Part shown: piece after piece, positions 2-47,614 of the stretch
Numbering within the stretch: position 1 is the first letter of the stretch
Layout of the letters: every line of letters begins with the position of its first letter
Source of the DNA: Breoghania sp. L-A4
GTDB taxonomy: Bacteria > Pseudomonadota > Alphaproteobacteria > Rhizobiales > Stappiaceae
Direction: 5' to 3'
DNA length: 64,000 bases
Assembly (NCBI RefSeq): GCF_003432385.1
Contig: NZ_CP031841.1
Coordinates: forward strand, 682,001-746,000
Position numbers and translations under genes: made by a program
Notes under the pieces: generated by a model
What the model was told of the DNA's origin: nothing
The model's database searches: none
What the model saw: the letters and a program-made list of their open reading frames with translations, nothing else

Positions 2-760
2 CTCGCCAAATACCTCATGTTTCACACTTCCTCCAACTGGGGCATTTACCGCCCGGAGGTCCACGTCCAGGAAATCCTCCGATTGCCAATGATCCTGCCC
101 GATGGCCATGAGGACCCGGTGGCTGCGCGCGCCATTGTGGAACAGGTTGTCAAGATTATCGACGACGCAATCGGCGTGGCCTCGATGAATTATCTTGTCC
201 GCAACAACGCCGTCGTCGACGCAACGCGGGCGATAGAGCCACTCGTCGATCAGTATTTTGGCGTGCAGCCTTCGGAGCGGCTGCTGATCGACGATGCCAT
301 AAACGTCATCATTCCCAGCGTGCAGCCGACCCGATCACGGGTCGGCGTCCCAACGATGACGCCGGCGACTGATGAAGTGCTGGCAGCGTATAATAAACGG
401 CTTTGCGCGACACTAGGTCAGTGGTCGCGCGCTGATGCGGTCATTGGGCGGGTCGTGCGCTCCCAGAAGCTCGGTCTCGCGATGACGGTTATCGAACGGA
501 CAGAAGCGCAGAGGCCGCCCGCGCCCGCCATCACGGTCGATGACATGGATGTCCTGACAACCATCGACAGGCTGCAAAAGGCTTTCCCCAGCACCAAGCG
601 GACTCTCGATTTTGTACGGGGGTTGATGGTTTTTGATGGTCTAAGCCTTTACATCGTCAAGCCGGACGCATGCCGATACTGGACGCAATCCTCGGCCCTG
701 AACGACGCTGATGAAATCGCGGGGACGCTGCTGACCTACCCGGGTCAAGCCCGTCCATGA
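2..760 (+). CDS. N6-adenine DNA methylase, C-terminal part (cut by window edge)
   Basis: The reading frame is open to the first bases of the window, so only the last 250 or so residues of a longer protein are present. The stretches FHTSSNWGIYR and SLYIVKPDACRYWT resemble the region after the catalytic core in class I SAM-dependent N6-adenine methylases of restriction-modification systems, which recognises DNA. The catalytic NPPY core lies outside the window, so activity cannot be judged. Its stop overlaps the ATG of the next gene (ATGA at 757-760), which implies coupled translation with the nuclease-like partner. The family call is moderately sure. Confidence 0.6.
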   Translation, partial: LAKYLMFHTSSNWGIYRPEVHVQEILRLPMILPDGHEDPVAARAIVEQVVKIIDDAIGVASMNYLVRNNAVVDATRAIEPLVDQYFGVQPSERLLIDDAINVIIPSVQPTRSRVGVPTMTPATDEVLAAYNKRLCATLGQWSRADAVIGRVVRSQKLGLAMTVIERTEAQRPPAPAITVDDMDVLTTIDRLQKAFPSTKRTLDFVRGLMVFDGLSLYIVKPDACRYWTQSSALNDADEIAGTLLTYPGQARP

Positions 761-1428
761 GCTTCGGAGGCAACCCGACGGCCTGGCTGGATTTAATCGA
801 CTCCCAGGTGCCCGACATTCTTCGCCTTATCCTCTCCACGTGGGACGAAATGCCGTCCCTTTCACCGGATGCGCTCGAAGATTCGACAACCGAAGCGCTT
901 TGCCGAGCTCTGCGTAAGAACCGAACCAGTGCCAGCTTGCCGTTTCGCATCGACATTCAAATCGTAGAGCTCGATCCAGCCGCAGGTCAGGATCAAGGTC
1001 GAATGGACATCACGTTTTCACCAATGATTCCGCACGAGGCCTTCTACTTCTGTTTGGAGTGTAAACGCCTCAACGTCACCAACCACGGCCGACGGCGTAC
1101 CTTAGGTACAGAATACGTTACCCAAGGCATGTTCCGCTTTGTGGCTCGACAATACGGCGATCAAGTCCGTCATGGCGGCATGCTGGGCTATGTTCTTGAC
1201 AGTCGCGTCGATCTCGCAATCACCGCAGTTCAGACCGCGATCCGAGCCCGCCGTGAAGATCTTAAGATTGCCGGAGAGGGCGATCTGCGCCAATCGAGCT
1301 TCCTTCCCGAGATGGAACACGTTTTCGAGACGGCGCATATCCGTGACGAGGCGACGTCGCAATTCCTGCTACAACATATCTTCGCACCGGCGAATTTACC
1401 TAAATGGCCCGTCAGAACAGTCCCATAG
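757..1428 (+). CDS. PD-(D/E)XK-type nuclease-like partner of the methylase
   Basis: A 223-residue protein with a plausible restriction-endonuclease core: Asp84 (RMDITF) on one strand and Glu101-x-Lys103 in FCLECKRLN on the next, the D...ExK arrangement of PD-(D/E)XK nucleases. Glu46 on the preceding helix could complete the site. There is no transmembrane or repeat region. It overlaps the methylase gene by four bases, the usual layout of a modification/restriction pair, so I infer cleavage of DNA lacking the partner's methyl mark. It is the last gene before the prophage integrase end. It could instead be a non-cutting specificity or accessory protein. Confidence 0.55.
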   Translation: MSFGGNPTAWLDLIDSQVPDILRLILSTWDEMPSLSPDALEDSTTEALCRALRKNRTSASLPFRIDIQIVELDPAAGQDQGRMDITFSPMIPHEAFYFCLECKRLNVTNHGRRRTLGTEYVTQGMFRFVARQYGDQVRHGGMLGYVLDSRVDLAITAVQTAIRARREDLKIAGEGDLRQSSFLPEMEHVFETAHIRDEATSQFLLQHIFAPANLPKWPVRTVP

Positions 1429-1655: not shown

Positions 1656-2687
1656 CTATTCTGCTTTATGTTCGCGCGCCAATTTAGCGCCAGCTTGCAT
1701 GGCCAACCTCTTGCGATCCGCGGCTCGTGTGTACAGTTCTGCCATCTTGGATGAACTCCATCCGAATACCGCCATAAGCTCCGACGTCGTTGCTCCTTGC
1801 TCGGCTGCGAGAGTAGCGGCTGCTTTACGCATCCCATGCGCCGAGCCCGTAACGCCTGCAGCCTCGCACTTTTTGCGGAACCAGTTGCCAAACCCTGCTG
1901 CCGAGAACGGCTTTCCGAACTCGGTTACAAGAAACACCGTATCACCAGTGCTGGTGGCCTCGATCGAGGCTTGTAGCGCTGGCAAAATCGGTAGCGTAAT
2001 AAGTTCACCGTTCTTTTGTGCCGTGATCTGAAGCGCACCATTCCTGACGTGCTGGCAGCCCAGGCGAACAATGTCTGATCGTCGCAGCCCGGTAAATGCG
2101 AGCAGATCAAGCGCTAGTCGTGCCTTGGTGCCGAGGGGCCAATGCGATTGATATTGCTCTATTTCGCTGGGCGTCCATGTGCGGAAGCCTGTTTTGCTCT
2201 CGGCCAACAACTTGATCGATCGGGTCGGGTCGGCGTCAACAAGCTCAGATTCAAACGCCCAGCCGAAAACTGCGCGCAGCGTCTTTAGGAAATTGTTCGC
2301 GGCACCAGGACGGTCAGCGCGGTCCTCGCGACCGCGGCGGATCACGGCGGGTGTGATGTCGACAATCAGGGCATTCGGGCCTGCGCGTTTGGAGATCCCG
2401 TCCATCAGATTGGCCCGTACGCGACGCGTAGATGGCGCCAGGGCGGCAAAAGCGGCGCTTGCCTTGTAGGACTGAAACAACCAAGCCAGCGTGCCGTGTT
2501 TCGCTCGCGGTTGCGCAGGAGCCTTGGCAGCTAAGCCGGCGAGCGCTGCGTTGTAGGCGACCGTGAATTCAGGGGATCCATGTTTTCCCGGCAGCCGCTG
2601 TCGAGCTCCTTTGCCGCGCCGAAAATACCAAGTCACGCGGCCGTGGCGGGAAGTCTCTCGTTGTACGTAGGGGAGGCGTCTGGTCAT
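1656..2687 (-). CDS. int: Tyrosine recombinase / phage integrase
   Basis: A 343-residue site-specific recombinase that would integrate and excise the prophage. The catalytic set is visible: Arg202 (FTGLRRSD), His284 and Arg287 (HGMRK), Trp310 (FGWSS) and the nucleophile Tyr319 (ELYTRA). The N-terminal half carries an Arg/Lys-rich arm-binding segment and a core-binding domain. I chose ATG at 2687 although the frame runs open to 2948: a small gene ends at 2696 just before it, and the protein before this Met is low-complexity. It is the last gene of a three-gene minus-strand operon and points out of the prophage toward the left boundary, as expected for an integrase next to its att site. Confidence 0.92.
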   Translation of the reverse strand: MTRRLPYVQRETSRHGRVTWYFRRGKGARQRLPGKHGSPEFTVAYNAALAGLAAKAPAQPRAKHGTLAWLFQSYKASAAFAALAPSTRRVRANLMDGISKRAGPNALIVDITPAVIRRGREDRADRPGAANNFLKTLRAVFGWAFESELVDADPTRSIKLLAESKTGFRTWTPSEIEQYQSHWPLGTKARLALDLLAFTGLRRSDIVRLGCQHVRNGALQITAQKNGELITLPILPALQASIEATSTGDTVFLVTEFGKPFSAAGFGNWFRKKCEAAGVTGSAHGMRKAAATLAAEQGATTSELMAVFGWSSSKMAELYTRAADRKRLAMQAGAKLAREHKAE

Positions 2688-2695
2688 GCCGCTCG

Positions 2696-2869
2696 TTACA
2701 GTCTGATGTCGTGTTGGGGTTCTGTCGGTTTTTCCGGTGTACCGAACAGGACGACAATCGTGCCGTCTTTGCGAATTTCGACACCGGACACGTCGAGTCC
2801 GCCATTGCGGGCACCTTTGACTGCGCGCGCGATGTCGGCTTGTTTGACTAAGGCAGGGCGTCCGGCCAT
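2696..2869 (-). CDS. Small phage protein between integrase and coiled-coil gene (57 aa)
   Basis: A 57-residue ORF beginning MAGRPALVKQADIARA and ending 8 bases before the integrase start. The N-terminal half (VKQADIARAVKGARNGG) looks like a short helix-turn-helix-like element and the second half like a small beta segment (VEIRKDGTIVVLF). Proteins of this type are common beside alphaproteobacterial phage integrases. An excisionase or directionality role is possible from position only. It begins two bases after the upstream stop, so it is probably translationally coupled. It lies inside the longer open integrase frame, in another frame. Confidence 0.65.
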   Translation of the reverse strand: MAGRPALVKQADIARAVKGARNGGLDVSGVEIRKDGTIVVLFGTPEKPTEPQHDIRL

Positions 2870-2871
2870 GG

Positions 2872-3036
2872 TTATTCTGAGGCCCCGTGCTGTGTGCCGT
2901 GGCGCCCAACCATCTTGGCGTCTTTTGTTTGGCAGGTGAGACGTTCAATCTCGATTTCGATGTGGGCCACAGCAGCTTCGGCGGCCGCAGCCTCCGCCTT
3001 TAGAACTTCGAGTAGGCGAATATTCGTGTCCGACAT
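2872..3036 (-). CDS. Small coiled-coil phage protein (54 aa)
   Basis: A 54-residue protein starting MSDTNIRLLEVLKAE, with an Ala/Glu-rich helix through about residue 33 that could form a coiled coil. A good ribosome-binding site (GGGAG, 7 bases before the ATG) fixes the start. It is the first gene of the integrase operon and lies directly downstream of an operator-like region (3061-3120). Function unknown. Confidence 0.6.
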   Translation of the reverse strand: MSDTNIRLLEVLKAEAAAAEAAVAHIEIEIERLTCQTKDAKMVGRHGTQHGASE

Positions 3037-12383: not shown

Positions 12384-14351
12384 ATGACATCCATGATCGT
12401 CGAGACCGCCAATGCTGAATGGTTGGCGGCCGATGTCATGGCTGAAATCCTCAATCCCCCGCCGCCGGTCGACTATCTCGCCTGGGCGGAAGCCAACATC
12501 GTCTTTTCCGAGCGTGAGAGCCCTTATCCGGGACCGTACAATCGGGCGCTGTTTCCGTACTTCGATGAGATTCTGCGGGCGATGTCACCGGACGATCCAT
12601 GCCGGGTGGTGACGGTGAAGAAGTCGGCGCAGCTTGGCGGCACGGTGCTGGCGAACATCTTTACCGGCGGGTCGATCGCCATGGACCCGGGTGATTTCCT
12701 CTATGTGCATCCGACCGACGGCAACGCGCAGCGCTGGTCGAAGATGAAACTCGTGCCGATGCTCAAGGGCACCACGGCGCTACGCAAGCTGTTTCCGATG
12801 CGCTCGCGCGATGGTCTGGACTCGGTTCTCTACAAGGAAAGGGTCGACGGGCGCGGCGCGATCCAGATCTCGGGCGCCAATTCGCCCGCTTCGCTCAGCC
12901 AGGTGACGATGAAACGGCAGGTCCAGGACGATCTGTCGAAATGGGAGATCAATTCCGCCGGCGATCCGGAGACGCAAGCCGACAGTCGTTCTCAGGCGCA
13001 TGAGTTCGCGAAGATCGCGAAAATCTCGACGCCGATGATCATGCCGGGGTGCCGCATCACCCGCAATTTTGAGGCCGGCAGCGAGGAGCACCCTTACGTG
13101 CCTTGTCCGCACTGCGGGCACATGCAGGTGCTGGTCTGGTCGAACATGCTGGAGAACCTCGATGAGGAAAAGCCGGAAGCGGCTTGCTTTGTCTGCGAGG
13201 GACCGGAGTGCGGCGGCGTCATCGAGGAGCATCACCGCGCGCAGATGCTGCGCGAGCTGGAATGGCGGGCGCACAATCCGCGCGCGCGGCGCGAGCATCG
13301 CTCGTTTTGGATCTGGTCGGCCTATTCGATCCTGCAAAGCTGGGAGCGCATCGCGCGCTCCTGGCTGAAGGCCAAGGGCGATCCGGCGAGCGAGCAGACG
13401 TTTCTGAATGATGTGGTCGGTGAGGCCTACCAGGCGCAAGGCGAGGCACCGCCCTGGGAGGAGTTGCGCGACCGCGCGGCCGAGGCGCATTACGACCGCG
13501 GGCGGATCCCGTCCGGCGCCCTGGTCATCACGCTCGGCATCGATTGCCAGACCGACCGCGTGGAGTGGCAGGTGGTTGGCTGGGGGCGGCACAAGAACCG
13601 TTTCGTCATCGACTATGGCGTCATTCCCGGTCACATCGCGGAAAGCCAGTGCCAGGCCAGTCTCGACGGCCTGGTCGCGCAGGCGTGGATGAACGAGGCC
13701 GGTCATCAGATCGTGGCCGACAAGGTCGCGATCGACGGCAACGCCTGGACGGAAGACGTCTGGGATTGGGTCAAACGGCACCCGGCGTCCCGTGTGATCA
13801 TGGTGCGCGGCAACAACCGCGACACGGCACCGCTGCTGGAGCGGGTAAAGAAAGAGCGCAACCGGCGCACGGGCAAGGTGCTGCGCTATTCCAAGCGGTT
13901 TTATTCGTTCAACGCGTCTGTCCTGAAGATGGCGTTTTATCGCAACGCCAAGAAGATCGATCCGCTGGAGACCGGCTATGTGGCCCTGCCGCGTGGGCTT
14001 GAGGATGAATATTTTCGCCAGCTGACGGCCGAGCGCCGGGTCGGCAAGCGAACGCGGGACGGGTTTGAGGAATTCCGCTGGGAGAAAGATCCAGCGCAGG
14101 CCAATGAGGCGCTCGACACGATGAACCAGGCAGAAGCCGCGGCGATGCGTTTTGGCATTCGCGGCATGCCGGACACTGTGTGGGACGCGCTGGAAGCCGC
14201 GCGCGAAACCCCGGCGCCAACTGGTGAACAGCTCGACATTGAAGACCTTATGGACCGGCCGGCCGCTGTCGTGCCGGACAAGGCCAGGACGGCGAACAAG
14301 TCTTCAGGCGAGATCAAGGCATCGCGCCGCAGCAAGTGGGCTCATCGATGA
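12384..14351 (+). CDS. Terminase large subunit (lambda GpA family)
   Basis: A 655-residue packaging motor and nuclease. The N-terminal ATPase has the GpA-type P-loop in KKSAQLGGT and a zinc-binding-like segment (CPHCGH and CFVCEGPECGG, about residues 234-273). The C-terminal nuclease region begins at LGIDCQTDRVEWQVVGWG, with Asp residues for metal binding. Length and order match lambda gpA (641 residues). It ends overlapping the portal start by ATGA. It would cut concatemers at cos and drive DNA into the prohead. Confidence 0.93.
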   Translation: MTSMIVETANAEWLAADVMAEILNPPPPVDYLAWAEANIVFSERESPYPGPYNRALFPYFDEILRAMSPDDPCRVVTVKKSAQLGGTVLANIFTGGSIAMDPGDFLYVHPTDGNAQRWSKMKLVPMLKGTTALRKLFPMRSRDGLDSVLYKERVDGRGAIQISGANSPASLSQVTMKRQVQDDLSKWEINSAGDPETQADSRSQAHEFAKIAKISTPMIMPGCRITRNFEAGSEEHPYVPCPHCGHMQVLVWSNMLENLDEEKPEAACFVCEGPECGGVIEEHHRAQMLRELEWRAHNPRARREHRSFWIWSAYSILQSWERIARSWLKAKGDPASEQTFLNDVVGEAYQAQGEAPPWEELRDRAAEAHYDRGRIPSGALVITLGIDCQTDRVEWQVVGWGRHKNRFVIDYGVIPGHIAESQCQASLDGLVAQAWMNEAGHQIVADKVAIDGNAWTEDVWDWVKRHPASRVIMVRGNNRDTAPLLERVKKERNRRTGKVLRYSKRFYSFNASVLKMAFYRNAKKIDPLETGYVALPRGLEDEYFRQLTAERRVGKRTRDGFEEFRWEKDPAQANEALDTMNQAEAAAMRFGIRGMPDTVWDALEAARETPAPTGEQLDIEDLMDRPAAVVPDKARTANKSSGEIKASRRSKWAHR

Positions 14352-39076: not shown

Positions 39077-39907
39077 ATGTCAATCCTCACTGAAATGCGC
39101 GACGTGAATCCCGTCCCGCCGGCCGCCGGTTATATCGGCGGCAAATCAAAGCTCGCGGTCCGCCTGATTGATCTCATCTCCACCGTGCCGCATGAGCTCT
39201 ATGCCGAGCCCTTCGTCGGCATGGGCGGTGTGTTCCTGCGCCGGCCGAGCGCACCGAAGGCCGAAGTCATCAATGACCTCTCGGGCGATGTCTCGACGTT
39301 CTTCCGCATCCTGCAACGCCACTACGTGGCCTTTGTCGAAATGCTCCGCTTCCAGCTGACGACGCGGCGCGAGTTCGAGCGCCTGACCAATATTGACCCG
39401 TCGACCCTGACCGATCTCGAACGCGCGGCACGCTTCCTCTATCTCCAGCGCACCGCCTATGCCGGCAAGGTTTCGGGGCGCACGTTTGGGACGCGAGCGG
39501 GTGCGCCGGCGCTGTTCGACATCACGCGGATCGTGCCGCTGCTTGAATCCATCCACGAGCGGCTCGCTGGCGTCGTGATCGAGGCGCTGCCGTTCGATCG
39601 CTTCATCAAGACCTATGATCGCCCTCACACACTGTTCTTTATCGATCCGCCGTACTTTGGCTGTGAGACCGACTACGGCGCCGGCATGTTTACGAGGGAT
39701 GATTTCGCGCGTCTGGCCGCGCAGTTGGCAGAGATCAAGGGACACTTCATCCTGACGATCAACGATTGCCCGGAGATCCGTGAGATCTTCGCCGCGTTCG
39801 AGCTGACGGCGGTGGATGTCAGTTACTCGATCCAGCGCGAGGCGCCGAAGGAGTTCGGTGAATTGATCATTACCGGACCGCGGGCGCTGCCGCGGCTGTT
39901 GATTTGA
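39077..39907 (+). CDS. Dam-like N6-adenine DNA methyltransferase (D12 class)
   Basis: A 276-residue methylase that would methylate adenine, probably in GATC-like sites, to protect or regulate phage DNA. Motif I is FVGMGGVF (about 46-53), motif X is GYIGGKSKL (18-26) and the catalytic DPPY is at 190-193 (FFIDPPYFG). Length and motif order match the Dam/D12 class. AGGAGG precedes the ATG. It is the last phage-like gene before the right boundary. Confidence 0.9.
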   Translation: MSILTEMRDVNPVPPAAGYIGGKSKLAVRLIDLISTVPHELYAEPFVGMGGVFLRRPSAPKAEVINDLSGDVSTFFRILQRHYVAFVEMLRFQLTTRREFERLTNIDPSTLTDLERAARFLYLQRTAYAGKVSGRTFGTRAGAPALFDITRIVPLLESIHERLAGVVIEALPFDRFIKTYDRPHTLFFIDPPYFGCETDYGAGMFTRDDFARLAAQLAEIKGHFILTINDCPEIREIFAAFELTAVDVSYSIQREAPKEFGELIITGPRALPRLLI

Positions 39908-40281: not shown

Positions 40282-43200
40282 CTAAGCGATGTCGCTCAAC
40301 TCCATGTACCTCACCCAACCATCAATGAGCGCATCTGGCGTGTCTTCCTTTAAATACGGGAAAATCTCATTCATTAGTGCCCTAGCTGCGAGAACCTTAC
40401 CAGAAGACGCCGCTCGAACGGCCTCAATCGCTCCAGCGGGGTCAACGAAAAGGTTCCGCGTTAAAAAGCCAAGCAATACTCCATAAGAGGCAGGCGAGAT
40501 CCTAAGATTTTGCTGCGCGACCGCATTGTTCGCACCAACCAACCAAGGAAAATCAACAATCACCTGAACACCAGCGACCTCCGGAATTTCATCGGACGGA
40601 TCGCCGAAAAATGCCACCAACGAGGTCAAACAAGTCCTCTCGCGCGGTTCCTGATCTGTCTCACGGTCTCCCGCCGCGAATACGTCGACTCTCAGGGCGC
40701 CCATTGTCGACGTTAGTCCTATCCCCACTCCAGCCTCATCCGGCTCATCGAAATCCGGGTCTTTCAGAAGGGTTGCGACGGCCCCATGTTCCCAAACCGC
40801 GCCCGCATCATGATGTTCACCACCGACTGTAAGCGCCGCGATCTTCGCTACCGCGAATTCCCAATACTTCTTGGAAACTGCCTCAGCAGCACTTGCACCA
40901 AGACCGGAGGAAAAAGTGAAAGCCAATTCCGATATCTGGTAGTTCACGAACTCGCGAACTCGATCTCGGACTGCAACCTGACGATCTAACGGAAACATTG
41001 TTCCAAACTCGGCCGTTCCCAGAGCTACGTCCGAACTTCGCACTCCTTTGTCGAAAATTCGGCGCGCTTCTTGTCTAGATAGCAAAAACTCCTGATCCTG
41101 CTTTTTAAACAGCATCGGAATCGAGTCCTCGACGCATCCTAGTCTAACACGATGTGAAAGCCGAGCGGCGTCAAAGCGCTGAACTGGACCTGAGTAATCA
41201 GACTTCATTGAATTCAACAATTCTGAAGCAAAAAGAATTTTCCAAGTCAGTCCATCCGCGAAGCTCATAATGTCTAAAGAAATTTTGGAAGATTTGATCG
41301 CCTGAGCGTCATAAATCTGTTGCATTACGATTAAAGCGTTTGAGGCTGGCGCGCCACTAATCCAATGCAATAATCCTAGGAATATTCGCATACAAGCGTC
41401 ATGGATACCTTCCGGATACCTGGCCTGAAGGTGATTCAGAGGTTGATTCTTTACACTCCAATTGCGAAACTCCTTGAGAACTGTTTCAAAAGACTTCTGT
41501 GAGTCTTCTTCCCCTGGTACTTCGCTACAAAGCATTATCGCAATTCGCTCTGACAAATCACGCAAGTTTCTGTCGGCGTTCCAGTCTCCGACAAATCCCA
41601 CTTCAGGACAGTTTTCTATTACTCTTCGATGAGTTTCCTCCTGCACAATAATCGGCAACAACGCCAGTATGAAGGGCATTGGCCTTTCGGATGCATCCTT
41701 CCAGGACTTAAACATGGCTCTCATAGATCGCCGCAACGGCAGGACGGTTTCGATCTCAGTTCCAGTATCTATTACTGAAGCCCCCAACTTGGTGAGGCGA
41801 GGTCGCCCAAGGTATGGTTCGATTAGCATGAGATCATCAGATTGACATCCTAAAATTGTGAATCCCGTGGCCGCAGTGGCAAGATCCAATAATTTTGAAT
41901 TATCAGCTTTCTGCTGCCAAAATAGCGTCCGTTTTAGGTATTTGTTGACCAATTCTGTTTCTGTGGCTCCCGCTCGTTTTTGAACTCCATTTCGACCTGG
42001 CGTACCTCCTAAGAAGCGCATGCCGTCCAAAACTGATCGAACAAAAGGATATGTAATAATTTCGGGAGCCGCGTGCTTAGGTTCTTCGCCAGCTTGAATC
42101 GATCGAGTTGCGTTCACGTCTTTTCCGTCAAATAGTCTACTGGTAACCTCAGGCACGCCTCCGAAGTATTCATTAATAATGCGTGCGCAAGAGTCGCCAC
42201 GCGATTTCGAGACGAATATTACTACATTCGCTCTAGAAGAGGATTGGTTTAATCTTCCAGCTCTCCCAGCCATGTTGAAAAATGCATTCGTTGATAGTCT
42301 CTTATCTCCTCGCCCATCCGAAGGTCGTCGTTCACTCGATGGGAAGACAAGTGATCCAAAGAATACGTCGTCGACCTGAAGGTTGACACCGTAGCTCAGT
42401 GTTTCTGTTGCAATTATGATTTCCGATCTGACATCAGCGTCAATAGGCTTAGAAATATAATCCTCGATTGCATGACGAAGTCTGGGAGCTATCGAGGCGT
42501 TGTGCAAAAGTACACCGCTTGTGATTGCCAATTTTAATTCATCGCCGCTGATTGACATTTCTTGCTTGTCGACCGTTGCAGCCAGCTCCGTCAGTTCACT
42601 CAGAGATGGGTCCCATCCTGCCAGAGTATGCGAACGTTTAATACCTCCACGAACATACCTTGAGATTTCAAGCCCGATGTCTTTGGTATGGGAAAAGATA
42701 AGGAGCCTGTGCCCAGATGGATTTGAATACATCCAATCAACCACAAATTCCCGCACCACTTTGAGATACTCATCCTTCTTGCCTTCGGATTTGTTCTCAA
42801 TGCCTGCCATCGGTATTAGCGCCTCAAGTTGCGATAACCGGCTGGCGTTAGCCTTCATTTCTGCAGGTTCCAAATACGTCAACTCGTCACGCGCAAAACT
42901 TTTGAACGGAATTATTGTATATGTGCGTGTGTCGTTCGACCCAAGAAGCAAAAAGTTGAAGTCTACTGACTTTGGCCGAACATTTGATCGAGAGATTATA
43001 GGTGGATATTCACCCAGGGAATGGCTGTCAAAGTGTGTGAACATCGTTTTAAGGGCTGTCTCACTCACATTGTCTGTAGTCACGCCAATGATACGCAGTG
43101 GATTGTTCGCATCCAGGGACGTCGAGCGGCGCTCTTTCTCATATTTTATTTTCGCTAACAACGATTCAAGCACACATCCGCGATGCAGGTTTTCGATCAT

Positions 43201-44862
43201 GTGCAGCTCATCGATTATTACAAGATTGATTTTTCTTAGATAATCGGGAGACATTGACAAAAGCACGTTGGCCTTTTCGTAAACAAGGCATGCAACAAAG
43301 AAATCGCCCCGCGAAAGCGCGCCATCATCAGTGTGGTCCTCACCAGTAGAGAGGATCACACTCTTGGCTCTTAGTGCGTTTCTAGAAATATTTTTGTACA
43401 GAGGTTTCCAGACTCTGTATCTCTCTTGTGCAAGAGCTCTCGTTGGTGCAACATAAATAATCCGCGCTGTTTCTATACCGTACGGTTTTGCCAGCCCAAA
43501 CGCCGCCTCCGCAAGGGTCGTTTTACCCGACGATGTTCCTCCGGCCAAGATTATATCTTGGAATGGAGATTGAATTTTTGGAATTTCTTCCAAGAACTTG
43601 TTTTGTAGGTCAGTTAGCGTCCAGTCATCACGCGATTTTATCTCCCCCATGTTTCGTAACATTTTTAGGGCCACGAGATTTTCAGAATAGCATGAGTCTA
43701 AAAGCTGGTGGAACTTTGGACCGACAACAGGCTCTTCGATTTCACCCGCGCTCTTCGGAGATGCAGGGTCAACTTCTGAGTTCACATTCGCCTTATTTAT
43801 ACCGAGAGCTTTATCGAGTTGGTCGAAACTAGAGAGCGTTGTTTTGGTTTTCTCGATTGATACATTTCCTGATATATTAAATGTATACCAATCTGGGCGC
43901 TTTCTATCCTTTGCATCAGGATCAAACCATTGTGGTGCATCCACCCAATTATCACGCCACTCTTTCGCCTGGAGTGAAACCGACAAACGCTCCGGATCCA
44001 CCTCCCCAAACAGGACGCCATTTGCGTAGTGTTCGTCATCGTGTGCTTGGAATGCTGCCCCACTTTGAATGTGTAAGGCATTGCTACCATGATGTGTCGT
44101 TTGGCTCACAGTACTCTTGTGCCTGTGTCCGTGAAGATAGAGAACACCGTGCTCTGAAAGGATCTTAGATATTTTACCTTGCTCAGCATCTTCCAAATGG
44201 CTGATTGGATGGTGTCCTAAGACCAACTTAATTGAATCTCGCCGAGCCCGCCCGAGAGCATGTTCTAAAATGTCTTTGCCTACGAACAGTTTACCAAAAT
44301 CTGCTTCTCCCTGATCTGCACTGCCCTGGCACAACCACGATGTATTTAGTGCCACAATGCTGTATTTTTGCTTTTCGAAATCAATTTCGTCCAGGTGATA
44401 TGCACTATCAGAATTTAACCAGTCATTTCCTTGCACGTCCGGCCTTCGAACGAAATCCGAATAGAACGCAAATCTTTTCAAGCAGTCCCTTCGGTTGCCG
44501 CTAGAAATTTTCGATGGCCTGAGGTCCTGCGTCGGATCAAGTATCTGTGATCTAGTGTACCTGTCTGCATCGCGATCAACATCGTGATTCCCTGGAATAT
44601 AGAATATCTTGTTTAACCACCCACGTTGCTTTTGATCGGCCATTAGAGAAACAAGGGGCTCGTGAAATTCTAGACGATATCTTTCAAATTGCTCTTTCTT
44701 GCCACTTTGGCTGATGTCACCAGTGACAAAAAATACATTTGGAATCCAACCTTGCTTAAGTTGATTTTTGACCAACGCTAGGCATCGTTCAAAGGCTATG
44801 GACTCGACGAATGCATCGCAATGCTTTCCAGTGTGGAAATCCGAAAAATGTACCCAACGCAT
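40282..44862 (-). CDS. Mre11-like metallophosphoesterase fused to Ski2-like SF2 helicase (1526 aa)
   Basis: A very large two-enzyme protein. Residues 1-290 form a calcineurin-like phosphoesterase with all metal-site motifs: SDFH (Asp8, His10), GD (Asp49), GNHD (91-94), GHHP (216-219) and HGHRH (244-248), as in SbcD/Mre11. Residues about 435-875 form a Ski2/Hel308-type helicase: Walker A GTSSGKTT (442-449), APTRALAQ (472-479), DELH (551-554), LIFSHT (721-726), ATETLSYGVNL (818-828) and NMAGRAGRL (863-871). The last 650 residues are largely helical and unassigned. The gene is visibly more AT-rich than its neighbours, which suggests recent transfer. AAGGG lies 7 bases before the ATG. Probably nucleic-acid processing in defence; not proven. 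Confidence 0.85.
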   Translation of the reverse strand: MRWVHFSDFHTGKHCDAFVESIAFERCLALVKNQLKQGWIPNVFFVTGDISQSGKKEQFERYRLEFHEPLVSLMADQKQRGWLNKIFYIPGNHDVDRDADRYTRSQILDPTQDLRPSKISSGNRRDCLKRFAFYSDFVRRPDVQGNDWLNSDSAYHLDEIDFEKQKYSIVALNTSWLCQGSADQGEADFGKLFVGKDILEHALGRARRDSIKLVLGHHPISHLEDAEQGKISKILSEHGVLYLHGHRHKSTVSQTTHHGSNALHIQSGAAFQAHDDEHYANGVLFGEVDPERLSVSLQAKEWRDNWVDAPQWFDPDAKDRKRPDWYTFNISGNVSIEKTKTTLSSFDQLDKALGINKANVNSEVDPASPKSAGEIEEPVVGPKFHQLLDSCYSENLVALKMLRNMGEIKSRDDWTLTDLQNKFLEEIPKIQSPFQDIILAGGTSSGKTTLAEAAFGLAKPYGIETARIIYVAPTRALAQERYRVWKPLYKNISRNALRAKSVILSTGEDHTDDGALSRGDFFVACLVYEKANVLLSMSPDYLRKINLVIIDELHMIENLHRGCVLESLLAKIKYEKERRSTSLDANNPLRIIGVTTDNVSETALKTMFTHFDSHSLGEYPPIISRSNVRPKSVDFNFLLLGSNDTRTYTIIPFKSFARDELTYLEPAEMKANASRLSQLEALIPMAGIENKSEGKKDEYLKVVREFVVDWMYSNPSGHRLLIFSHTKDIGLEISRYVRGGIKRSHTLAGWDPSLSELTELAATVDKQEMSISGDELKLAITSGVLLHNASIAPRLRHAIEDYISKPIDADVRSEIIIATETLSYGVNLQVDDVFFGSLVFPSSERRPSDGRGDKRLSTNAFFNMAGRAGRLNQSSSRANVVIFVSKSRGDSCARIINEYFGGVPEVTSRLFDGKDVNATRSIQAGEEPKHAAPEIITYPFVRSVLDGMRFLGGTPGRNGVQKRAGATETELVNKYLKRTLFWQQKADNSKLLDLATAATGFTILGCQSDDLMLIEPYLGRPRLTKLGASVIDTGTEIETVLPLRRSMRAMFKSWKDASERPMPFILALLPIIVQEETHRRVIENCPEVGFVGDWNADRNLRDLSERIAIMLCSEVPGEEDSQKSFETVLKEFRNWSVKNQPLNHLQARYPEGIHDACMRIFLGLLHWISGAPASNALIVMQQIYDAQAIKSSKISLDIMSFADGLTWKILFASELLNSMKSDYSGPVQRFDAARLSHRVRLGCVEDSIPMLFKKQDQEFLLSRQEARRIFDKGVRSSDVALGTAEFGTMFPLDRQVAVRDRVREFVNYQISELAFTFSSGLGASAAEAVSKKYWEFAVAKIAALTVGGEHHDAGAVWEHGAVATLLKDPDFDEPDEAGVGIGLTSTMGALRVDVFAAGDRETDQEPRERTCLTSLVAFFGDPSDEIPEVAGVQVIVDFPWLVGANNAVAQQNLRISPASYGVLLGFLTRNLFVDPAGAIEAVRAASSGKVLAARALMNEIFPYLKEDTPDALIDGWVRYMELSDIA

Positions 44863-44928: not shown

Positions 44929-45021
44929 TCATTGATGCCAAAGCGCCATGGCCTTCCCGGCAAGGTCACCAGCCGCGTTCTCGCCCTTTGCGATCGCGGG
45001 CATGACGGCCGGATGCGTCAT
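44929..45021 (-). CDS. 30-residue ORF coupled to the Trypco1-like gene (possible gene remnant)
   Basis: An ATG at 45021 overlaps the stop of the preceding gene (ATGA) and gives MTHPAVMPAIAKGENAAGDLAGKAMALWHQ in part, 30 residues, ending at 44929 just where the AT-rich helicase region begins. The coupling suggests a true second gene, now cut short. It may be the front of a lost effector gene, or a short natural partner. Very small, so uncertain. Confidence 0.35.
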   Translation of the reverse strand: MTHPAVMPAIAKGENAAGDLAGKAMALWHQ

Positions 45022-45377
45022 GTTGTGGTTGCCGCCTTCGGCTTTGGTTTCCAGACCAGCTTGACTTTCATCTGCGCCTCGGCGCTTGCCGACGCGAAGA
45101 CCACGCCTGCGCCGCCTACGAACTTCAACGTCAGTTCCAGTTCGGCTGTCTCCGGTGTGAGCTCGATGCCGGCGATGGTTTCCGACAGTGCATTGCCGGC
45201 AGCTTTGACCCGTGTGATGGCGGCCTCGAACGAGCCCTCGTCGAGGGCGGCTTTGGCCGCCGCAGCCCCTCCGGCGGGAACGAACCCCTTCGTCCGTGTT
45301 GATGACGCTTGAGCGTCTTCGTCCGGAACCTCGATAAGGATCTCTCCGTCAGGTGTATCGTATTTTAGGATTGCCAT
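45018..45377 (-). CDS. Trypco1-like (CU044_2847-family) protein
   Basis: A 119-residue protein from ATG 45377, fixed by GGAGGCGGGG upstream. The start KYDTPDGEILIEVPDED and the end AELELTLKFVGGAGVVFASASAEAQMKVKLVWKP follow the pattern of the small trypsin-co-occurring domain 1 family, which occurs next to caspase, trypsin or STAND-type conflict genes. It is divergent from the caspase-like gene with 80 bases between them. The family is thought to be an adaptor or protease-linked module; the mechanism is not established. Confidence 0.65.
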   Translation of the reverse strand: MAILKYDTPDGEILIEVPDEDAQASSTRTKGFVPAGGAAAAKAALDEGSFEAAITRVKAAGNALSETIAGIELTPETAELELTLKFVGGAGVVFASASAEAQMKVKLVWKPKPKAATTT

Positions 45378-45457
45378 CCCCGCCTCCAGTAATGTCTGAT
45401 GTCCAGTATTGGCTGCGGGTCGTAATTTGTTCAAGAAATAGCTTTGAGGCGTGACGC

Positions 45458-47614
45458 GTGGGCGAGAAGCATGCCCTTCTCATCGGAATGGATTTCTTTC
45501 AGGACGAGCGCTTGTCGCGGTTGCTCGCGCCGAAGGACGACGTCTATGCGCTGCGCGAGACGTTGTTGGCTTCAAAGATAGGTGCGTTCTCGTCCGCCGA
45601 GGTGCTGTTCAACAGCGAGCTCGTCGCGGTGCAGAGGGCTTTGCATCAGCTGTTCGATGAACGTGCCCCGGATGACCTGCTGTTTCTCTACTACACCGGC
45701 CACGGCCTGATCGACACGGACGGCGCTCTTCACCTGAGCTTACACAATTCCGACGCACGCACGCCCAGCATCGGTTCTCTTGAGGCTGAATTTGTTCGCA
45801 AGCGCATGCGGGCATCGCATGCCGAAGCGCAGATCGTTGTCCTCGATTGCTGCCACAGCGGCGCTTTCATGGGCGGCGCCAAACGCGGCGCGAATGAACC
45901 CGCGGTAACGGCACAGACGTTCGATACCGAAGGCAGGGGCCACTATATCTTGTCCGCCTGCACGGCGACGGAATTCGCTTTTGAAGCTGGCCAGTTGCGC
46001 GAGGGCGACCCGGACGCCCGGCCGCGCTCGATCTTTACCGAATGCTTCGTGCAAGGCCTGAAAACCGGGGACGCCGCGCCGCAGAGCGACACGATCACCA
46101 TCGACGCGCTCTACCACTACACCCGGGCCCGGGTGCTCGAGCGCAACATGCCGATGGACCCGCAGCGCTGGATCTCCGGCGGCAGCGGCGAGCTGGTCGT
46201 CGCGCGGAACCCGGAGGTGCGGGTGCCGGTGCCGGACGAATTGCGCAAGGAACTGCTTGAAGGCAGCAAGTTCGGACGGTTGGGGGCGGTGGCCGAACTT
46301 CGGAAGATGCTGGACGCTGGCGAGGCGTCCTATACGGCGCGGCAGGCGCGGGAGATTCTGGAAGAAGGCCTGCGGGATCCGGAATGGGTCGAGGTGGAGA
46401 GGGCCATTCAGGCAGCCCTATGCGGGCACAATTCCACGCCATCGGTTAAGCTTGGGCCCGTTGAGCACGAAAAATCTCGGTCTCTCAATGCGTTACTGTG
46501 GGCTTCCGGTGGAGGTGCCGCGTGTCTTCTGCTGTTCGCCACTGCCGCGTTGATCTCATGGACGGATCTCCAGCGTCAGTTTTGGTCGGTAGTAGGAGCG
46601 AGCGCCGACGTTCGACGTACGGAATTGGACGCTAATGCTCCGCGCGAAGCTATTCGGATGCGGGCAGAGGAACTCCCACTCACAGTCGCTATACCAACTT
46701 CGGAACTTGCGAAAGTGCCAACGGTAACATTGTACCAAAGCTCTCAAGTGGGGCCCGACGGCAATACGCGCATTATCGCTTGGTCCGATCCGGCCACGCT
46801 TCCTGATCTGGCCGTTCTTCGAGAGCAGCTTCCGGACGGAACATATGCTCCGGAAATGATCGTGGTCCCAGTTGGCAACTTCATGATGGGATCGCCTCAG
46901 TCGGAGGATCAGCGCAGCGATGACGAAGACGACACGCCCGGTCCCGGGGGCTCACAGGTCAAGGTGACGTTTACTCAACGTTTCGCGATCGGTAAGACGG
47001 AGGTGACCTTCGCGCAATGGGACGCTTGCGTTGCCGATGGTGGCTGCAATATGGATGCGGCAGACGACGTGTGGGGTCGGGGCGATCAACCGGTGATCAA
47101 GGTTTCCTGGGAAGACGCACAATCCTATGTGGCATGGCTGAACAAGAAACTGGTTGGGGACGAGAACGGCCCCTACGGACTGCCATCGGAAGCACAGTGG
47201 GAATATGCGGCACGGGCCCGGACGACGACACCGTTCTGGATCGGGAAAACGATTTCGACGGAGCAGGCGAACTACAATGGAGACGATGTTTATGGCGATG
47301 GTGCCAAAGGCGAATACCGGAAAAAGACAATCCCGGTCGGCAGCCTGAATGCGCCCAATCCTTGGGGATTGCACGACGTTCACGGCAACGTCTGGGAATG
47401 GGTGCAGGACGTTTACATCGACAGTTACGCCGGACTACCAACGGATGGCACGCCGCGCCTTCTCTCATCGAAAGACGCGGCTTCGGCCGATCGGGTTCTC
47501 CGCGGCGGTTCCTCGAATTTCGATCCGGGGGGCCTTCGCTCCGCGAATCGCCTCTGGCTCCAGCCGGTCATCCGGAGCGAAAACCTCGGCTTCCGCCTCT
47601 CCAGGACGATTTAA
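45458..47614 (+). CDS. Caspase-like protease with HEAT-like, membrane and formylglycine-enzyme-fold domains (718 aa)
   Basis: Residues 1-255 are a caspase (peptidase C14) domain with catalytic His82 (YYTGHG) and Cys132 (VLDCCHSG). Residues about 264-321 are helical, HEAT-like (GRLGAVAELRKMLDAGEASYTARQAREIL). A membrane segment follows (ALLWASGGGAACLLLFATAA, about 346-365), then a linker and a formylglycine-generating-enzyme/C-type-lectin-like fold (467-716: VPVGNFMMGSP, DVHGNVWEWVQD, RVLRGGSSNFDPGGLRSANR, NLGFRLSRTI). The FGE active-site Cys pair is not evident, so binding is more likely than catalysis. It starts with GTG after GAGG. I infer a membrane-anchored sensor-protease that triggers a suicide or signalling response. 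Confidence 0.82.
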   Translation: MGEKHALLIGMDFFQDERLSRLLAPKDDVYALRETLLASKIGAFSSAEVLFNSELVAVQRALHQLFDERAPDDLLFLYYTGHGLIDTDGALHLSLHNSDARTPSIGSLEAEFVRKRMRASHAEAQIVVLDCCHSGAFMGGAKRGANEPAVTAQTFDTEGRGHYILSACTATEFAFEAGQLREGDPDARPRSIFTECFVQGLKTGDAAPQSDTITIDALYHYTRARVLERNMPMDPQRWISGGSGELVVARNPEVRVPVPDELRKELLEGSKFGRLGAVAELRKMLDAGEASYTARQAREILEEGLRDPEWVEVERAIQAALCGHNSTPSVKLGPVEHEKSRSLNALLWASGGGAACLLLFATAALISWTDLQRQFWSVVGASADVRRTELDANAPREAIRMRAEELPLTVAIPTSELAKVPTVTLYQSSQVGPDGNTRIIAWSDPATLPDLAVLREQLPDGTYAPEMIVVPVGNFMMGSPQSEDQRSDDEDDTPGPGGSQVKVTFTQRFAIGKTEVTFAQWDACVADGGCNMDAADDVWGRGDQPVIKVSWEDAQSYVAWLNKKLVGDENGPYGLPSEAQWEYAARARTTTPFWIGKTISTEQANYNGDDVYGDGAKGEYRKKTIPVGSLNAPNPWGLHDVHGNVWEWVQDVYIDSYAGLPTDGTPRLLSSKDAASADRVLRGGSSNFDPGGLRSANRLWLQPVIRSENLGFRLSRTI

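What the first reader, a model, noticed from the sequence alone, without database searches (positions are those of the whole stretch)
40282..44862. Giant Mre11-like phosphoesterase/Ski2-like helicase fusion: candidate new defence protein
The sequence shows all five metal-site motifs of an SbcD/Mre11-type phosphoesterase and all main SF2 Ski2-type helicase motifs in one 1526-residue chain, plus about 650 unassigned C-terminal residues. Sbc/Mre11 enzymes normally pair with an SMC-type ATPase, not a Ski2 helicase. The gene is AT-richer than everything around it, sits at a prophage edge and is next to caspase/Trypco1 genes. Inference: a single-gene nucleic-acid sensing and cutting system against phage or plasmids. 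I know of no named system with exactly this fusion, but cannot search.
Basis: partly seen in the sequence, partly recalled or inferred. Interest (0 to 1): 0.78.

Follow-up and report, generated by a model that had tools for sequence, protein, structure and literature searches.

The report
Helicase protein with exchangeable N-terminal enzymes
A bacterial gene beside a prophage encodes a very large protein that joins a phosphoesterase to a helicase, and its two closest relatives found here carry the same helicase joined to quite different enzymes, which suggests one-piece immune sensors with interchangeable weapons, not yet tested in the laboratory.

Summary
In detail: window 40282-44862 (minus strand) encodes one intact 1526-residue chain with the five metal-site motifs of a metallophosphoesterase (MPE, residues 1-307), a Ski2-like SF2 helicase (408-916) and a 610-residue tail. 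"Mre11-like" is not the best label: the nearest curated family of the MPE is the validated anti-phage protein DS-8.

The main result came from relatives. Two other proteins share helicase and tail but have unrelated N-termini: a conflict-type GT4 glycosyltransferase in Pelagimonas and a TCAD9/APH-kinase-like domain in a Magnetococcales assembly. The three helicases form one clade (100/100) among 15 rows; six caspase-Ski2 helicase fusions from plasmids group with them less firmly (85/91). Conversely, of nine MPE relatives scanned (of 16 found), eight carry a STAND-type NTPase and/or an FGE-sulfatase domain and none a helicase.

Best reading: a single-chain sensor-effector immune receptor in which the helicase takes the place that STAND ATPases hold in bacterial NLR-like proteins. 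This is inference: there is no phage assay, the helicase/tail model failed, and only three members are known. I rate it a new variant of a known kind.

The parts
40282..44862 (-). MPE-helicase gene, 1526 aa single chain
43942..44862 (-). residues 1-307: metallophosphoesterase, DS-8 type, predicted effector; metal motifs at D8/H10, D49, N92/H93, H217, H246/H248
43642..43941 (-). residues 308-407: linker, no domain found
   Evidence: pLDDT under 50 for most of it
42115..43641 (-). residues 408-916: Ski2/Hel308-like SF2 helicase core, predicted nucleic-acid sensor and motor
41044..42114 (-). residues 917-1273: tail part 1, conserved in all three members (IDTGTEI 1031, WISG 1167, RVRLGC 1238); residues 1012-1279 weakly match the C-terminal region of caspase-helicases
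   Evidence: identification weak (hhalign probability 24%)
40285..41043 (-). residues 1274-1526: tail part 2, conserved with Pelagimonas, not detected by BLAST against the third member, unassigned
45018..45377 (-). Trypco1 gene, 155 bases upstream, same strand; participation unproven
45458..47614 (+). caspase + FGE-sulfatase gene, divergent; participation unproven
39077..39907 (+). phage-type DNA methyltransferase, the last prophage-like gene identified before the MPE-helicase
1656..2948 (-). integrase at the left end of the prophage

Best explanation
It is a single-chain sensor-effector immune receptor against phages or other mobile DNA. Shown by sequence: an N-terminal DS-8-type phosphoesterase with an intact metal site, an intact Ski2-like helicase core, and a long conserved tail; relatives keep helicase and tail but exchange the N-terminal enzyme. 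Inferred: helicase and tail recognise an invader's nucleic-acid structure (replication intermediate, damaged or unusual DNA or RNA); ATP turnover changes conformation or oligomeric state and releases or assembles the N-terminal phosphoesterase, which then hydrolyses a nucleotide or nucleic acid and halts the infected cell. The helicase thus plays the part that STAND/NACHT ATPases play in bacterial NLR-like proteins, and that HamB plays for its separate nuclease in Hachiman.
For: Effector exchange: P0001 (window), P0004 (Pelagimonas, GT4-conflict 4.9e-38) and P0003 (Magnetococcales assembly, TCAD9 1.7e-8, APH 4.6e-7) show no N-terminal similarity at E<=10 in 3 of 3 pairs, while helicases match at 7e-110, 6e-49, 2e-45 and tails at 4e-96, 1e-5, 1e-5 (100 shuffles of the P0003 tail: best 26.2 bits against 50.8 observed). 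The three helicases form a 100/100 clade among 15 rows and group with six caspase-Ski2 fusions at 85/91; Pfam finds the caspase in 6 of 8 plasmid helicases scanned. Recalled catalytic motifs are present in the MPE, GT4 (EX7E), kinase-like (HGDxxxxN) and six caspase domains. The reverse exchange: of 9 MPE relatives scanned (of 16 found), 6 carry a STAND-type NTPase, 6 an FGE-sulfatase domain, 8 at least one of these, 0 a helicase. In DS-8, mutating the MPE or the NACHT ablates defence (PMC13092281, passages). HamB as sensor helicase for an effector nuclease is published (PMC12278908, passages). The gene is sporadic and AT-rich beside prophage and caspase/Trypco1 genes; the Pelagimonas one also lies near phage tail genes and a CHAT protease gene.
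Against: No experiment. Only three members found. The helicase/tail model is unusable (mean pLDDT 36), so sensing is unproven. TCAD9 is below its curated cut-off (34.5 against 40 bits), though APH is above its own (30.3 against 23.2). BLAST similarity of the P0003 tail ends near residue 1273. The link to the caspase-helicases is below the program's mark of 95 and uses a midpoint root. PADLOC labels the best MPE match 'Endonuclease', which suits the rival. In the third locus the three flanking ORFs scanned were a NUBPL-type ATPase and two transposases, no defence gene. Many Ski2-like proteins do housekeeping work.
Confidence: 0.6

Rival explanations
1. A direct nucleolytic machine: the helicase unwinds or translocates on invading nucleic acid and feeds it to the phosphoesterase, which cuts it, like a one-chain restriction enzyme.
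For: PADLOC's best match to residues 2-307 is a model described as 'Endonuclease' (100.5 bits); the fold is shared with Mre11/SbcD (Z up to 19.6); helicase-nuclease pairing is common in defence, e.g. HKD-DNase fused to an SF2 helicase in PbeA (PMC10853773, passages) and HamAB.
Against: The same helicase and tail are joined to GT4 and kinase-like domains, and the nearest other helicases in the tree to caspases, which have no use for a DNA feed. The MPE is closer to DS-8 and Rv0805 than to Mre11.
Confidence: 0.22
2. Not autonomous: it works with the neighbouring Trypco1 and caspase-FGE genes as one multi-gene conflict system.
For: Trypco1 lies 155 bases upstream on the same strand and the caspase gene beyond it; the Pelagimonas relative has a CHAT protease gene about 1.6 kb away.
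Against: GC of the two neighbours is 60.6 and 60.7% against 47.0% for this gene, so they probably arrived separately; the three flanking ORFs scanned in the third locus include neither.
Confidence: 0.1
3. A housekeeping or prophage-specific enzyme of DNA repair or RNA processing with no immune role.
For: Ski2-like cores resemble Brr2, Hel308 and Mtr4; the gene lies beside prophage genes; PHROGs matches the core to a family called Holliday junction branch migration helicase (99 bits).
Against: Not found in 2 of 3 genomes of its genus and in nearly all other genomes searched; conflict-type N-terminal domains in both relatives; no match in the phage records or in three scans of viral contigs.
Confidence: 0.08

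Closest known systems
DS-8 (NCBIfam NF053861, DefensePredictor, PMC13092281)
   Same: N-terminal metallophosphoesterase of the same type in a one-gene protein with an NTPase behind it; best NCBIfam match of residues 5-305 (124.6 bits)
   Different: DS-8 has a NACHT ATPase; here a Ski2-like helicase and a long tail, and the full-length DS-8 cut-off (790 bits) is not reached
Hachiman HamAB and AbpAB
   Same: Ski2-like helicase controlling an effector (PMC12278908, passages); PADLOC HamB models match the helicase core (up to 72.4 bits)
   Different: There the effector nuclease is a separate protein; here effector and helicase are one chain, and HamA was not found in the genome (whose control did not ring)
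Caspase-Ski2 helicase fusions on plasmids (L050, L051, L053, L054, L055, L058; I found no name for them)
   Same: Nearest other helicases in the 15-row tree; N-terminal effector and Ski2-like helicase in one chain
   Different: About 1000-1040 aa, caspase effector; the tail profile does not match them, a profile comparison does only weakly
GT4-conflict (PF20706) and TCAD9 (PF19974) domains; bacterial conflict systems of PMC8195603 and PMC7159879
   Same: GT4, calcineurin-type phosphoesterase and APH-like kinase are described there as exchangeable effectors
   Different: In the passages read these sit with STAND, MoxR-vWA or GTPase cores; the SF2 helicases mentioned (SWI2/SNF2 and type-I-restriction types) are partners of restriction nucleases in effector modules, not Ski2-like cores
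YydB (PDB model 9a6c, complex with YydD)
   Same: Best structural match of the MPE (Z 27.1, rmsd 3.1, 287 aligned)
   Different: An integrative, partly predicted model; its partner YydD was not examined here
SbcD/Mre11
   Same: Metallophosphoesterase fold and five metal motifs
   Different: Not the nearest family; no SMC-type ATPase among the adjacent genes identified

Membership tests
DS-8 | DS-8-type N-terminal metallophosphoesterase | tested here: met
   124.6 bits, E 3e-36, residues 5-305
DS-8 | NACHT ATPase behind it and full-length match | tested here: not met
   No NACHT listed at E<=1; 124.6 bits against a cut-off of 790
Hachiman (HamAB) | HamB-type helicase over its full length | tested here: not met
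   Best HamB model 72.4 bits, best stretch 270-423 of 1104 positions; outside the group that holds L056, which matches PDC-M23B over its length and HamB at 264.5 bits
Hachiman (HamAB) | HamA (PF08878) partner | tested here: inconclusive
   0 of 1 genomes, but the control rang in 0 of 14
SbcD/Mre11 | Five metallophosphoesterase motifs | tested here: met
   invariant in a 13-row alignment that includes the window protein
SbcD/Mre11 | SbcD/Mre11 as nearest curated family | tested here: not met
   Best phosphoesterase models are DS8_antiphage and DS9_1_antiphage; no SbcD/Mre11 model listed at E<=1; Rv0805/Icc first in the PDB profile search
SbcD/Mre11 | Adjacent SMC-type ATPase (SbcC/Rad50) | tested here: not met
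   Adjacent genes are a DNA methyltransferase, Trypco1 and caspase-FGE
Ski2-like SF2 helicases | SF2 motifs of Ski2 type and Ski2-like proteins as nearest solved sequences | tested here: met
Hel308 | Hel308 equivalog score | tested here: not met
   85.5 bits against 1200
VMAP/iSTAND ternary conflict systems | MoxR ATPase and vWA protein genes in the locus | not tested
   Not searched by profile; only Trypco1 and caspase-FGE were identified beside the gene

The most novel reading that the evidence does not exclude
A new family of single-chain bacterial nucleic-acid receptors built like RIG-I or NLRs: a constant Ski2-like helicase plus a 600-residue tail of its own, on which unrelated effectors (phosphoesterase, glycosyltransferase, kinase-like domain, and caspase in a neighbouring clade) are exchanged, so that a helicase rather than a STAND ATPase is the universal switch.
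Probability: 0.5. Interest if true: 0.78.

Novelty: new variant of a known kind. Interest (0 to 1): 0.62.

Why it matters
Bacterial immune receptors with exchangeable effectors are known mainly on STAND ATPases and GTPases. A Ski2-like helicase used the same way would be another universal sensor, close in logic to the animal RIG-I-like receptors, and would explain how a helicase can control enzymes that do not touch nucleic acid. It also offers a simple test: the N-terminal domains should be interchangeable on one helicase.

Tried and rejected
Mre11/SbcD as the identity of the phosphoesterase: weighed and set aside. The structural gap is modest (Z 21.7 against 19.6), purple acid phosphatases score as high as Rv0805 and GpdQ (Z 21.3), and the MPE model has mean pLDDT 66, with residues 332-403 under 50.

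Structure of helicase and tail: AlphaFold with a three-row alignment gave mean pLDDT 36 and was not used. Tail in Pfam: 0 families over 3 members at E<=1; in PDB sequences nothing better than E 0.49. Tail against the tails of six caspase-helicases: hhalign probability only 24%, E 8e-4, collinear over residues 1012-1279; reported as weak.

More members: phage records none; viral contigs none in three scans; plasmids 29 and 11 records with one-domain matches, none covering 80%. The first genome-contig scan gave none; the second gave the Pelagimonas gene, a contig that I take to be the Magnetococcales one again, and one archaeal helicase matching 138 residues. Genome searches: 2 of 299 of the phylum had helicase and tail (25 of 299 had any match, the other 23 to one domain), 1 of 3, 1 of 385, 1 of 48, 1 of 394, 2 of 398, 2 of 397 (where G1460 is only a partial helicase match of 62.9 bits and not a member). 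These sets overlap, and in most of the large searches only two first-look candidates per genome were scored, so the counts are lower bounds.

Tree: 16 helicases gathered, L008 dropped because its matched stretch was under 300 residues; rows were chosen by similarity. MPE relatives: 16 found, 9 scanned in Pfam, 5 of them also in NCBIfam, 12 aligned with the window protein.

Prophage boundary: no exact direct repeat over 14 bases. A same-family genome matches the window from 48725 rightwards, and blastn found nothing more in 40 kb of it, so the insertion site was not resolved. DNA of the Trypco1-caspase stretch matched 3 of 21 relatives, own included, the others over short pieces only. The organism and the phage type were not identified.

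Literature: ten searches of one library of open papers; in the listings and passages seen I found no MPE-Ski2, GT4-Ski2 or caspase-Ski2 fusion. Papers were read as passages only (PMC12278908, PMC13092281, PMC7159879, PMC12839542, PMC12799240, PMC10853773, PMC12458937), and PMC8195603 as passages plus its section on GT4 domains. Supplements, where such fusions may be listed, were not open.

Full report
WHAT IS THERE. The ORF at 40282-44862 lies on the minus strand and encodes 1526 residues without interruption. Pfam gives a calcineurin-like phosphoesterase at 1-249 and a DEAD helicase at 427-579, both above the curated cut-offs, and nothing else above one. The five metal-site motifs and the main SF2 motifs are present; the metal motifs are invariant in an alignment of the window protein with 12 relatives. 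The gene has 47.0% GC against 63.8% for the rest of the window, with GC3 45% where six other genes of the window range from 67.5% to 82.7%; this fits recent horizontal gain.

SURROUNDINGS. A prophage lies to the left: integrase 1656-2948 and terminase 12384-14351, then tail sheath, tape measure, tail protein, amidase and a DNA methyltransferase ending at 39907. On the right are Trypco1, 155 bases upstream of the start and on the same strand, and a divergent caspase plus FGE-sulfatase gene. The prophage end could not be placed. The Pelagimonas relative also lies near phage tail genes (including the same family, phrog_52) and a CHAT protease gene. This parallel holds for 2 of 3 loci and may be chance.

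THE PHOSPHOESTERASE. Its best NCBIfam match is DS8_antiphage (E 3e-36, residues 5-305); DS9_1_antiphage follows far behind. In PADLOC the best match is a model labelled 'Effector, Endonuclease' (100.5 bits), then the candidate PDC-S60 (89 bits). The 13-row profile finds Rv0805 first in the PDB and SbcD/Mre11 later. A model of fair quality aligns best to an integrative model of YydB (Z 27.1, rmsd 3.1, 287 aligned), then Rv0805 (21.7; 3.3; 236), GpdQ (21.3; 2.9; 233), SMPDL3B (20.8; 3.8; 287) and Mre11 (19.6; 6.4; 255). So 'Mre11-like' is true of the fold and not of the nearest family. Of 16 proteins found with this domain, nine were scanned with Pfam: 6 carry a STAND-type NTPase, 6 an FGE-sulfatase domain, 8 at least one of the two, 0 a helicase. 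DS-8 itself is MPE plus NACHT, and mutation of either ablates defence (PMC13092281, passages). The domain therefore behaves as a travelling effector.

THE HELICASE AND TAIL. By sequence the helicase resembles Brr2, ASCC3/Slh1, Hel308 and other Ski2-like proteins, and among defence models PDC-M23B (81.3 bits) and HamB (72.4 bits). A genome search gave one relative of helicase plus tail in an assembly that I take to be the Magnetococcales one, and a profile-guided scan a second in Pelagimonas phthalicica. Compared by region, the three N-termini have no similarity (no hit at E<=10 in 3 of 3 pairs), while helicases (39, 30, 28% identity) and tails (32, 22, 25%) are related. The Pelagimonas N-terminus is a GT4-conflict glycosyltransferase (E 4.9e-38) with an EX7E motif; the Magnetococcales one is TCAD9/APH-like (TCAD9 34.5 bits, below its cut-off of 40; APH 30.3 bits, above its cut-off of 23.2) with HGDLHAGN and LIDF motifs. 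A profile of the three tails found only its own three among 13 Ski2-like proteins examined.

CASPASE-HELICASES NEARBY IN THE TREE. From 40 listed plasmid rows (29, 11, some records in both) I fetched ten helicase regions; eight helicases were scanned with Pfam and 6 carry an N-terminal caspase domain, all six with the His and Cys motifs searched for. In a tree of 15 helicase cores the three long-tail proteins form a 100/100 clade and the six caspase-helicases a 99/97 clade; the two group at 85/91, below the program's mark of 95, with a midpoint root. Rows were chosen by similarity, so nearness holds only within this sample.

MECHANISM. Shown: motifs of active sites and exchange of N-terminal enzymes. 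Inferred: the helicase is the sensor and switch, because the enzymes joined to it have no common need for unwound DNA. The nearest tested parallels are HamB, the sensor helicase that controls HamA (PMC12278908, passages), and DS-8. The substrate of the phosphoesterase is unknown here, as it is for DS-8. A direct nuclease-helicase machine remains the chief rival, and PADLOC's 'Endonuclease' label speaks for it.

RARITY. The family is sporadic: 1 of 385 genomes of the class, 1 of 48 of the class of G053, 1 of 394 in the Pelagimonas family, which is Pelagimonas itself, 2 of 398 of the phylum, and in the order 2 of 397, one of them only a partial helicase match. The sets overlap and the counts are lower bounds.

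VERDICT. What is new is the evidence for a constant Ski2-like helicase with exchangeable N-terminal enzymes. I found no description of it in what the ten literature searches showed me. I score it as a new variant of a known kind (sensor-effector conflict proteins), interest 0.62.

Noticed in passing
L050:564-8190 (Rhodopseudomonas sp. BAL398 plasmid): A dense defence island: phosphoesterase gene, caspase gene, two TIR genes, a PDC-S54-like gene and a caspase-Ski2 helicase fusion close together.
   Followed up: partly
L051, L053, L054, L055, L058 (plasmid helicases): Caspase-Ski2 helicase fusions of about 1000-1040 aa in Agrobacterium, Bradyrhizobium, Bosea, Hymenobacter and Rhizobium plasmids, with the caspase motifs searched for; no name found in the searches made.
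   Followed up: partly
L023, L025, L031, L032 and L033 (genomes of the class of G053): Phosphoesterase-NACHT proteins, four of five also with FGE-sulfatase; L023 has an extra N-terminal KGGVGR-type ATPase and L033 about 500 residues before the phosphoesterase.
   Followed up: no
window 45018-47614: Trypco1 sits beside a caspase-FGE gene here, whereas it was described as co-occurring with trypsin-like peptidases (PMC7159879, passages).
   Followed up: no
window 2-1428: Two co-directional ORFs of unknown function (252 aa, running off the window's edge, and 223 aa) outside the integrase end of the prophage, in a stretch with GC below the window average.
   Followed up: no
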